Source: Branchiostoma floridae
Lineage: Eukaryota; Chordata; Leptocardii; Amphioxiformes; Branchiostomatidae
DNA length: 64,000 bases
NCBI RefSeq assembly: GCF_000003815.2
Contig: NC_049993.1
Coordinates: 5,671,686 to 5,735,685, forward strand
Reading direction: 5' to 3'
Shown: positions 9,832 to 12,800 of the stretch, piece after piece
Numbering within the stretch: position 1 is the stretch's first letter
Layout: every line of letters begins with the position of its first letter
Notes under the pieces: generated by a model
Databases searched by the model: none
Told to the model about the DNA's origin: nothing
The model's input: the letters and a program-made list of their open reading frames with translations, nothing else
Program-made: the position numbers and the translations under genes

Positions 9832-9845
9832 TTTATTTCTTTATT
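9832..9845 (-). promoter_or_regulatory. polyadenylation hexamers of the CUB-EGF gene
   Basis: On the minus strand AATAAA occurs twice: at 9840-9845, overlapping the stop codon TAA (9841-9843), and at 9832-9837. The 3' UTR is therefore probably very short, or a further downstream signal is used. Confidence 0.5.
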
Positions 9846-12800
9846 TTGGTTCTTTCATCTCCTTGTCCAGCGAAGACGACCGTGACCCCTGCAGGGACTG
9901 GTAGTCGCTGTCGGGTCGGGCCGCCTGTAGGGACTGGTAGGCGCTGTCAGGGCGGGCCGCCTGTAGGGACTGGTAGTCGCTGTCGGGTCGGGCCGCCTGT
10001 AGGGACTGGTAGTCGCTGTCGGGTCGGGCCGCCTGTAGGGACTGGTAGGCGCTGTCAGGGCGGGCCGCCTGTAGGGACTGGTAGTCGCTGTCGGGTCGGG
10101 CCGCCTGTAGGGACTGGTAGTCGCTGTCGGGTCGGGCCGCCTGTAGGGACTGGTAGTCGCTGTCGGGTCGGGCCGCCTTGAGCTGGGCCGGGTTGTCTAT
10201 GCCGCTATCCTGCATCTCTAACCTATAGGCAGGAGAGATACTCATTCAAGCGGACACACAGATATATGTTGGCTTAAAACAAAGCTGAGCTAGAGCAACT
10301 TGTGACAATGATACGCATGTTAAATGTTAAATAATAAGCCAGTTCATTGGTTGAACTGTGCATGTGCGAGGTCAAAGATCATGACCCCAACTTGTAAACC
10401 TTTCTTGTCAAGACCATCCTGATACATGTGCAGAAGTGTTTTGTTTATGACTCGGGCCCATTAAACTTTGACATATTACCCACAATGCCATTAAACTTTG
10501 ACATATTACCCACACGCGCGTAGAAAGAAATAGACCGTTCCAATAATGGCAATATATATATAGCCACGCCAATCTCAGTCAAAACTTAGAAATGCAAAAC
10601 GAAAAGGCACAAATGCACCAATTCGACAGACCTACATTCACACTCTCTATTGAACAACTTGAACTACTTATTTTGATTGACAGTCGGTATCGGTCTGTTA
10701 TCATGAAGCTAAAAGAAGAAGATTTACCTCTCTAATTTCTCTAGCTCCTGCTCTCGAGATTTGACTCCGTACCTGCAAGAAGTATAATCATGTGACATCA
10801 TTCATATATCTATGCAAATCAGTTGAAATACTGCACTAAGCCATCACTCCTATGGTAGCACATTTCAAAAGCATGGCTTTGTGTAATCTCCAAGCGGATC
10901 TTGCTTTGGCTAATAACTCCTCTACCGGCTAAACTCCTTCCCATTTGCCACAGCAAGATCTGCTTGGAGATAAGGCTTCGTGCACAATACTAGTACCAAC
11001 AAAAAAAGACAATCATGTCATCCAATGGTGCCATTAGAAAGTTCGAAACCACAAGAACTGATGTTTGCATTATCATACTCTACAATCCAGTCTATCTGCA
11101 TACGAACCTTCCCTTCTTCCTCCTCATGCAGAAACACACGGCAACGATAATCGCCAGTAGGAGAAGCAGAGCCAGGGCGGCCCCTATCACTGCGTACAGG
11201 ATGATCTCGTCTTCTGTCAGTCCACCGTCGCCATTTTGTTGCCCGTTGCTCCCCGGTTTTCCTGTAGTAACCGGTTTGATGTCCGGATGTCTCGTCGATT
11301 CCGTCACCGATTCTGTGGTTCCGGGCTGTTTCGTTGTTGTGATCGCTGCTGTGCTGGTTGTAGCTGGTGGGACGGTTGCGATTGCTGCCAAATAAGAAAA
11401 GAGTCCGCAACTGGTCATCAAACGGTTCACTAACGCAATATTTATGGTTGTAAGTTTTGGTGATGCATTTTGTAAGCATTATGATGGATTATCATATAGC
11501 CAGGTGCCGCGGACCAATCAGAAGGCCCAGTTACACGTTGGTTATGACGCAGTAACACATAGATTCAAGTCAGGCAGGTGGGTATCGCTCCCCTGATTGG
11601 TCAGAATGAATCGACACCGGCACCGGTGNNNNNNNNNNNNNNNNNNNNNNNNNNNNNNNNNNNNNNNNNNNNNNNNNNNNNNNNNNNNNNNNNNNNNNNN
11701 NNNNNNNNNNNNNNNNNNNNNNNNNNNNCGGTGCCGGTGTCGATTCATTTTGACCAATCAAAAGTAGCCATACACACAAGAAAGTAAGGTATATGCAGGC
11801 ATTGGCCAATAAAAAGGAGCGAAACATATGCCAGAGCAGAGGGAATACGTACGTACAGACTGCAGGGGGAATGGCTTCTTCTTACATTGATAATGAGTTT
11901 TGTTGTTCTTAAAAGCCTGCAATGTTTCGAATATTTCTGTGGAAATTTTGGTTTCAAAATGCAATCTGTAATCTCCTTACATATGCATGTACCAAAGAAC
12001 AAATGTGAATTTTCAGAAATTCAACAAAGGAATGCACACGTATCTATGCGTCATACAGGAGTTTGCAAGTTTGGGTGGGCTATATGATAATAACGTTAAT
12101 GACCCGCCTGTTCCTCGGTGTACATGGTGTCATAACGCCTGGTCCTTTGCTATAACCACCTCATAAAACCACCTCGTTCGCTTCGCTCACATCGGTGGTT
12201 TTATTCGGTGGTTATAGCAAAGGACCAGGCGTTATGACACCATATACACCTCGGGGCGAGTCATTAACCCTTAATTAACGCATTCTGAAATATTTGTATA
12301 CCTGTGTTTGGATACTGTATTTGATACAGGGCCCTGCAAGATTTAATTGCTGCAACATATCAAGACCTGTTGTTAATGGTTAACTCAGGTTATGATATCT
12401 ACCTACCTATTTCACAGAGTGTTCCTCCATATCCAGTTGGGCAGATACAATAGTATCCGGCAAAGAATTGTCTTTCTGTACAGGTGCCGCCATTTTGACA
12501 TGGATTGCTGGCACATTCGCCTATAATTACACAATGCAAAACATAATAAACATCAAGAGCAAATCAAAATAGTACATTTGAGAACGTTTTCGTGTCTATT
12601 TGTCACAGAAAGGACTAATAATTACTTTCGTGTTAAGATTTTTGTCGCAGGATTTTTAGCGAGACAAAGACAGAGAGGAATGCAGATATGGGTTAAATTT
12701 CCCGCCACACGACAGCTGAATATCGTAGCCACATCCACGAATATTCCAAGATAGACCTCATTTCACTGTCTCTGGGGCGAGAAGAGATCGTGACCATGAA

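What the first reader, a model, noticed from the sequence alone, without database searches (positions are those of the whole stretch)
9841..10222. Receptor tail built of eight tandem ITAM-like motifs
Seen: one exon of the CUB-EGF receptor gene encodes eight 12-residue repeats, each D-x-x-Y-x-x-L (DSDYQSL or DSAYQSL), and the tyrosines are exactly 12 apart. Known: ITAMs are (D/E)xxYxx(L/I) pairs separated by 6-8 residues, and here the spacing is 8. That gives seven overlapping or four separate ITAM frames in one chain, on a CUB/EGF/mucin ectodomain. Inference: a high-gain, possibly avidity-tuned phagocytic or immune receptor in an invertebrate chordate. The simpler alternative is a repeated YxxPhi endocytic signal.
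Basis: partly seen in the sequence, partly recalled or inferred. Interest (0 to 1): 0.88.

Follow-up and report, generated by a model that had tools for sequence, protein, structure and literature searches.

The report
Lancelet receptor with eight-tyrosine repeat tail
A lancelet cell-surface receptor gene ends in eight copies of a short tyrosine motif spaced like the on-switches of vertebrate immune receptors, and unrelated lancelet receptors carry similar arrays, so it may be a multi-copy signalling (or uptake) tail, though no function has been tested.

Summary
Window 10222-9841 (minus strand) is the last exon of a 14-exon model (17604-9841, 865 aa: signal peptide, CUB, seven EGF, mucin stretches, one TM segment). 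The tail has eight YQSL motifs, all 12 residues apart (YxxL-x8-YxxL): 8 half-ITAMs, 7 overlapping ITAM matches. All eight units also fit the broad ITIM form and YxxPhi sorting signals. The adjacent paralogue has one DSAYQSL plus an NPVY exon, so one motif is probably ancestral and the array a recent 36-bp minisatellite. New evidence: LRR and LRR-Ig receptors on another contig end in PAEYQSL units, mostly at the same spacing, with unrelated flanks; a third locus has 19 DYQx(L/I) units of 14 residues. A Syk-like tandem-SH2 pair is encoded (kinase domain not seen). Best reading: a multivalent phosphotyrosine docking tail, ITAM-like in geometry, probably doubling as an endocytic signal when unphosphorylated. 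New variant of a known kind; no function was tested.

The parts
9841..10222 (-). Exon 14: rest of the cytoplasmic tail with the eight-unit array, stop codon at the low end
   Evidence: Acceptor CTGCCTATAG, phase 2, open frame to TAA
9883..10170 (-). Array of eight 36-bp units RPDS[D/A]YQSLQAA (last unit ends QGS), order A A A B A A B A'
10728..10772 (-). Exon 13: 45-nt juxtamembrane mini-exon ([16 protein letters not shown] with its split end codons)
   Evidence: AG/GT, phase 2 in and out; the paralogue model also has a 45-nt exon here
11108..11384 (-). Exon 12: mucin-like stalk, transmembrane segment, MRRKKG stop-transfer
   Evidence: 40 of 72 compared codons encode the same residue in the paralogue
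12407..12520 (-). Exon 11: seventh EGF domain
12911..13453 (-). Exon 10: Thr/Ser/Pro-rich mucin-like stretch
14212..16094 (-). Exons 4-9: six EGF domains, one per exon (15981-16094, 15469-15588, 15151-15273, 14866-14979, 14577-14693, 14212-14325)
   Evidence: Pfam EGF 5.3e-58, 7 stretches over the whole protein
16545..16628 (-). Exon 3: short Thr-rich linker
16888..17268 (-). Exon 2: CUB domain
   Evidence: Pfam CUB 3.1e-14
17535..17604 (-). Exon 1: start codon and signal peptide (by eye)
5084..5104 (-). Neighbouring paralogue: single DSAYQSL motif
5606..5644 (-). Neighbouring paralogue: predicted 39-nt exon encoding NNPVYD (NPxY motif); no NPxY was found in the target's introns 12 and 13
4891..8460 (-). 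Neighbouring paralogue gene model (signal peptide, CUB, mucin, TM, tail; no EGF in the model); 3' end uncertain at an N gap
   Evidence: its CUB is 70% identical to the target's

Best explanation
The gene encodes a type I surface receptor whose tail is a multivalent phosphotyrosine docking array. Proposed working: ligand clusters the CUB/EGF ectodomain, a Src-family kinase phosphorylates several YQSL motifs, and neighbouring phosphotyrosines 12 residues apart are bridged by tandem-SH2 proteins, most likely Syk, so one chain can seat up to four at once or offer seven overlapping sites. [quoted passage not shown] The array grew by 36-bp unequal exchange from a single-motif tail like that of the adjacent paralogue. 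Shown here: gene model, frame, motifs, spacing, the paralogue's single motif, recurrence of YQSL arrays in other receptors, a Syk-like SH2 pair in the genome. Inferred: transcript, phosphorylation, readers, ligand, cell type and outcome.
For: Single open frame over 14 exons. All seven gaps are 8 residues, inside ITAM ranges read in papers (7-10 in PMC3553015; 6-12 in PMC9731471), with Asp at -3 in 8 of 8. YQSL arrays occur in LRR and LRR-Ig receptors on contig C5: of seven places Pfam was run on three, all LRR, two with Ig. In those three (L013-L015) all six adjacent spacings in the arrays are 12, while synonymous changes occur in the Tyr, Gln, Ser and Leu codons. Flanks of the target's 8 units and 20 LRR units are no more alike than shuffled letters, mean 17.35 of 24 different against 16.54 shuffled, so the arrays look independent. 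Own-genome Syk-like locus: N-SH2 exon (8.6e-42 to Syk) and a C-SH2 read from two exon pieces joined by eye (2.3e-25). The motif is kept in the paralogue, whose dS to the target is 0.43-0.74 by region. PMC5978004 (passages) infers ancient ITAM receptors upstream of Syk from phylogenetic correlation.
Against: The LRR and C7 arrays mostly lack the acid at -3: half-ITAM matches are 0 of 4, 0 of 3, 0 of 4, 1 of 5, 1 of 2 and 0 of 17 YxxPhi motifs in L013, L014, L015, L016, L020, L082. Spacing 12 is not universal: L016 also has one 14, L020 has 15, and the C7 array has 14 throughout. The stricter ITAM consensus fails. The LRR arrays were found by similarity to this tail, which favours the same period and motif. 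The paralogue has one motif only. Units in the target are near identical, so the array itself shows no selection. L016 has frameshifted units, so arrays can also decay. The Syk kinase domain was not seen. No expression or binding data.
Confidence: 0.5

Rival explanations
1. A multiplied endocytic/sorting signal: each SDYQSL is a YxxPhi motif for the AP-2 mu subunit, and repetition speeds uptake of a scavenger-type receptor without kinase signalling.
For: 8 of 8 motifs fit YxxPhi; SDYQSL differs by one residue from SDYQRL of TGN38, used as a (SDYQRL)3 AP-2 target in PMC3553015 (passages). The paralogue's NPVY is a type of motif also used for uptake (recalled). No -3 acid is needed, which suits the LRR and C7 arrays. 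Spacing of 14 at C7 fits as well as 12.
Against: Needs neither a fixed spacing nor eight copies; does not explain Asp at -3 in 8 of 8 here. In PMC3553015 several CD79 YxxPhi motifs did not bind or drive uptake in context, so a match is not binding. Not exclusive with docking: the membrane-proximal CD79b ITAM tyrosine does both there.
Confidence: 0.22
2. An inhibitory tail: each unit is an ITIM of the broad form (S/I/V/L)xYxx(L/I/V) that recruits SHP-2 or SHIP and damps other receptors.
For: 8 of 8 motifs fit the broad form (the broad form with Ser is recalled). A B. belcheri LRR receptor binds SHIP1 and, less, SHP1/2 after TCR stimulation in Jurkat cells, and inhibits through Lck-phosphorylated ITIM or ITIM-like motifs (PMC8211107, abstract and passages). 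SHP-2-like and SHIP-like SH2 exons are in the genome (named by eye).
Against: 0 of 8 fit (I/V/L)xYxx(L/V); most LRR units have Pro-Ala-Glu before Tyr, not S/I/V/L at -2.
Confidence: 0.13
3. A mostly neutral coding minisatellite: one YQSL motif works, the extra copies are a recent in-frame expansion tolerated in a disordered tail.
For: Units nearly identical with an AAB higher-order pattern; one motif in the paralogue; one to many copies among LRR tails; frameshifted units in L016 and a stop inside the C7 array.
Against: The same kind of motif is amplified in at least two unrelated receptor families; LRR units with diverged flanks keep YQ(S/T)(L/F) and spacing in L013, L014 and L015; the C7 array keeps YQ at every 14th residue over 19 units, with Leu/Ile at +3 in 19 of 19, though +2 and -2 vary.
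Confidence: 0.15

Closest known systems
ITAM-bearing chains (CD3 zeta, CD79, FcR gamma, DAP12)
   Same: Paired YxxL/I with Asp at -3 and a gap within the ITAM range in a type I protein tail; several pairs in one chain, as in CD3 zeta (recalled)
   Different: Motifs evenly repeated so pairs overlap (seven frames); ligand-type ectodomain on the same chain; no upstream second acid; Syk binding untested
hemITAM receptors (CLEC-2, Dectin-1)
   Same: The paralogue has a single acidic-preceded YxxL; CLEC-2 signals through a single YxxL (PMC9731471, passages)
   Different: Target has eight in cis; the lectins are type II (recalled)
MEGF10/Draper/CED-1 engulfment receptors
   Same: EGF-rich ectodomain; the paralogue's NPxY plus one YxxL matches the CED-1 tail composition (PMC8092387, passages)
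   Different: CUB instead of EMI (no EMI hit); target has no NPxY and eight YxxL
Amphioxus inhibitory receptor BbLcLRR (PMC8211107)
   Same: Lancelet receptor with several tyrosines phosphorylated by Lck
   Different: LRR ectodomain; ITIM-like motifs with DYATV, DYSEV, DYDDP cores; not described as tandem repeats in the passages read
YxxPhi sorting signals (TGN38 SDYQRL)
   Same: Core SDYQ-x-L
   Different: Single in TGN38 (recalled), eight here with fixed spacing

Membership tests
ITAM | Two YxxL/I separated by 6-8 residues (6-12 in looser use) | tested here: met
   7 overlapping matches, gap 8 each
ITAM | Acidic residue at -3 | tested here: met
   8 of 8 Asp
ITAM | Second acid further upstream, [D/E]x7[D/E]x2YxxLx7-10YxxL/I (PMC3553015) | tested here: not met
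   0 matches; position -11 is Gln (7) or Ala (1)
ITAM | Src-family phosphorylation and tandem-SH2 (Syk/ZAP-70) binding | not testable with these tools
   Only the presence of a Syk-like pair of SH2 domains was tested, and met
ITIM | (I/V/L)xYxx(L/V) | tested here: not met
   0 of 8; the broad form with Ser at -2 is met in 8 of 8
YxxPhi AP-2 signal | Tyr-x-x-bulky hydrophobic in the cytosolic tail of a membrane protein | tested here: met
   8 of 8; binding not testable here
MEGF10/Draper/CED-1 | EMI domain with EGF-like repeats | tested here: not met
   Pfam: CUB and EGF, no EMI among the 14 families listed at E up to 1
MEGF10/Draper/CED-1 | NPxY plus YxxL/ITAM in the tail | tested here: inconclusive
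   Met in the paralogue model (NPVY and one YQSL), not in the target (no NPxY in tail or introns 12, 13)

The most novel reading that the evidence does not exclude
Lancelets have independently built a class of receptors (CUB-EGF, LRR/LRR-Ig and perhaps the C7 protein) whose tails are minisatellite-encoded ladders of overlapping YQxL docking sites. These would be among the receptors upstream of invertebrate Syk, with copy number as an evolvable gain control in one chain, where vertebrates use dedicated multi-ITAM adaptor subunits.
Probability: 0.27. Interest if true: 0.82.

Novelty: new variant of a known kind. Interest (0 to 1): 0.6.

Why it matters
Syk-type kinases occur in invertebrates, and a correlation study infers ancient ITAM-containing receptors upstream of them (PMC5978004, passages read). 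This tail and the LRR arrays are concrete, peptide-sized candidates that can be tested against the lancelet's own Syk. If repeat number tunes signalling, it would be a natural experiment on ITAM multiplicity. If the tail proves to be a multiplied sorting signal, it still shows recurrent amplification of one tyrosine motif in separate receptor families.

Tried and rejected
Other reading frames of the exon: rejected, stops between acceptor and array. PDB search with part of the tail: nothing meaningful, two hits, best E 0.33. Pfam on the tails alone: for the target only sub-cut-off hits to Ice_nucleation and SSTK-IP, taken as repeat artefacts; none for the paralogue and one LRR tail. NPxY in the target: none in the tail or introns 12 and 13. 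Membership in MEGF10/Draper: rejected, no EMI. Common origin of the CUB and LRR arrays: no flank similarity above shuffles. A claim that spacing 12 itself is convergent was weakened by my own controls. A made-up query with gaps 6, 7, 9, 10 and the target's flanks (37 matches) led to the C7 array of period 14; it did not list the known C5 arrays, so its sensitivity is low, and apart from the target and the C7 array its rows were not inspected. The matching control with LRR-type flanks gave 125 matches: 6 at the known C5 arrays, 2 at the C7 array, 117 not inspected, so further arrays with other periods may exist. Of one search's weak rows, one on C5 (L009/L017, E 2.1) is a short GYQPV repeat with period 5, not an LRR tail; the C3 row has a single SDYSSI, and the C7 row (L011) gave no alignment in my re-check.

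Full report
Observation. The minus strand of 10222-9841 carries a 36-bp tandem array (9888-10178, 8.1 copies, 94% matches). Read in the frame given by the acceptor at 10222 it encodes [18 protein letters not shown], eight RPDS(D/A)YQSLQ units and [15 protein letters not shown], then a stop. The other two frames hit stops between acceptor and array.

Gene model. I joined 14 exons between 17604 and 9841; all 13 introns have GT...AG ends; phases are 1 up to exon 12 and 2 for exons 13 and 14, giving 865 residues without an internal stop. Pfam finds CUB (3.1e-14) and seven EGF stretches (5.3e-58) and nothing above cut-off in the tail. A hydrophobic segment followed by MRRKKG puts the 149-residue C-terminus in the cytosol (read from the sequence). 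No transcript evidence was available.

Motif content. The tail has nine tyrosines, eight in YQSL, spaced 12,12,12,12,12,12,12. Eight match [DE]xxYxx[LI], seven overlapping windows match [DE]xxYxx[LI]x6-8Yxx[LI], none matches the stricter form with a second acid, eight match (S/I/V/L)xYxx(L/I/V), none matches (I/V/L)xYxx(L/V), eight match YxxPhi, and there is no NPxY. Sequence alone therefore cannot separate ITAM, broad ITIM and sorting signal. The core is also very close to SDYQRL of TGN38, used as a triplicate AP-2 target in PMC3553015 (passages read). [quoted passage not shown] This is the basis for my dual-use proposal, and also a warning that a YxxPhi match is not binding.

Origin of the array. 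The next gene on the same strand (8460-4891) is a paralogue with a CUB 70% identical; of 13 CUB matches at E up to 1e-6, the 11 besides the target and this one are 32-42% identical. A search with the TM region gives four matches at E up to 0.01: the target, this paralogue (55%), and two at 37% and 46%. The paralogue model has signal peptide, CUB, mucin, TM, a 45-nt mini-exon as in the target, a predicted 39-nt exon encoding NNPVYD, and a tail exon with one [11 protein letters not shown]; its 3' end runs into an N gap. NPxY plus one YxxL is the composition described for CED-1 (PMC8092387, passages). dS/dN are 0.74/0.22 for CUB, 0.73/0.27 for the TM exon and 0.43/0.16 for 26 compared tail codons, so the single motif has been kept under ordinary constraint. 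Target unit B (DSAYQSL, codons CGC and GCC) matches the paralogue better than unit A, so A (DSDYQSL) is probably derived; the order A A A B A A B A' points to duplication of an AAB block. Eight is best seen as the count in this assembly.

Recurrence in unrelated receptors. Searching the genome with the tail gave 12 matches at E up to 10: three in the target, one in the paralogue, six on contig C5, one each on C7 and C3. Five of the six C5 rows are YQSL tails; the sixth (L009) is a GYQPV repeat of period 5. A search with one C5 tail gave 16 rows: 14 on C5, at seven places, and two in the target. Pfam on three of the seven shows LRR receptors, two with Ig domains; a fourth (L016) shows LRR repeats by eye; ectodomains of the other three were not seen. 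L013, L014 and L015 each have three YQ(S/T)(L/F) motifs with spacings 12, 12, and L013 and L015 have one more YxxL 40 and 31 residues further on; L016 has YRSL, YMSI and three YQSL before a frameshift, with spacings 14, 12, 12, 12; L020 has two YxxPhi motifs 15 apart; L030 and L031 have one EYQSL each, L030 also a distal YQPL. Units differ by synonymous changes inside YQSL (TAC/TAT, CAG/CAA, TCC/TCA, CTT/CTC/CTG); between or within L013-L015 the mean flank difference is 0.26 to 0.39 and the mean core difference 0.06 to 0.36. Flanks of the target's 8 units and 20 LRR units (11 of about 17 from L016) are no more similar than shuffled letters, so the arrays look independent. Against over-reading this: the LRR arrays were found by similarity to the target, which favours equal motif and period; L016 holds two units with a one-base insertion and one of 39 nt, so arrays also decay.

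Control on spacing. A made-up query with gaps 6, 7, 9 and 10 and the target's flanks gave 37 matches. Its best place outside the target, C7:1465181-1465963, was read: YQ occurs 19 times, at every 14th residue, in KP(N/D)DYQx(L/I)-type units with Leu or Ile at +3 in 19 of 19 and Asp at -1 in 18 of 19; a stop precedes the last two units. The same query did not list the C5 arrays. A second control with LRR-type flanks gave 125 matches, 8 of them at known arrays and 117 not inspected. So the amplified thing in this genome is roughly (D/E)YQxL, with period 12 in two families and 14 in a third; 12 is not a universal rule, but 10-residue gaps still lie in the looser ITAM range of 6-12 (PMC9731471, passages).

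Readers. Among 60 SH2 matches in the genome at E up to 0.001 one exon was searched against the PDB and is closest to human Syk (8.6e-42; the best hit outside Syk/ZAP-70 is 6e-16). In the same locus two further exon pieces, joined by eye, form a second SH2 (2.3e-25 to Syk). The kinase domain was not seen. SHP-2-like and SHIP-like SH2 exons are also present (named by eye). In B. belcheri an Lck homologue and an inhibitory LRR receptor that binds SHIP1 and SHP1/2 in stimulated Jurkat cells are published (PMC8211107, abstract and passages), so tyrosine-based receptor signalling in lancelets is not new. PMC5978004 (passages) infers ancient ITAM receptors upstream of Syk from phylogenetic correlation.

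Literature. Searches for amphioxus with ITAM and Syk (4 of 4 papers listed), with 'immunoreceptor tyrosine-based' (17, 11 of 11), for Branchiostoma, LRRIG, ITIM, ITAM (18, 25 of 1,232 listed), for amphioxus with tyrosine kinase, Syk and SH2 (26, 4 of 4), with LRRIG (41, 2 of 2), for tandem, repeated, multiple or overlapping ITAM/YxxL (71, 4 of 4) and for Branchiostoma CUB/EGF phagocytic receptors (72, 10 of 41 listed) showed no paper that, from titles, abstract starts or the passages I read, describes this gene or tandem YQSL tails. Passages were also read in PMC5431462, PMC10199209 and PMC7404264. The library is open-access papers only.

Judgement. The ITAM reading is plausible and strengthened by receptor recurrence and by the Syk-like SH2 pair, but it is not separable from YxxPhi or broad ITIM use without experiment, and the array is a recent minisatellite expansion of what was probably a single-motif tail. 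I rate a docking array (with probable dual endocytic use) at 0.5.

Noticed in passing
L082 (G000:C7:1465181-1465963, minus strand): 19 units of 14 residues, KP(N/D)DYQ(A/F/P/S/C)(L/I)-type, in a frame of about 1000 residues, with a second copy at C7:1458668-1458883 (+). Protein identity unknown.
   Followed up: partly
L016 (G000:C5:23383000-23392900), array around 5459-6100: LRR-Ig-type gene (by eye) with about 17 tandem PAEYQSL-like units, two with a one-base insertion and one of 39 nt, so later units are out of frame: an expanded and partly decayed array.
   Followed up: partly
L017 (G000:C5:25726000-25735900), 4434-4865 (+): Short-period (5-residue) GYQPV repeat, another Tyr-Gln-rich repeat; protein context unknown.
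   Followed up: no
window 37711-38919 (+), 47595-48695 (-), 28089-28970 (-): Two near-identical inverted ORF copies and a diverged third with a Cys-rich stretch around CLDPVC; Pfam gives only sub-cut-off UNC-79/CCDC106 hits for the first two and none for the third.
   Followed up: no
window 58052-58636 (-) and 59960-60421 (+): Two closely similar rhodopsin-class GPCR exons in head-to-head orientation (7tm_1 1.4e-10 and 2e-10).
   Followed up: no
window 11570-11790: An N gap (11629-11728) flanked by inverted copies of a GATTGGTCA...CGACACCGGCACCG-like sequence, and a palindromic stretch near 12110-12270, perhaps mobile-element ends (seen by eye).
   Followed up: no
window 10458-10514: 30-bp direct repeat, 1.9 copies at 100%, in intron 13.
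   Followed up: no
L054 (G000:C15:6243573 onward): The Syk-like gene lies on the same contig as the window, about 0.5 Mb away.
   Followed up: partly
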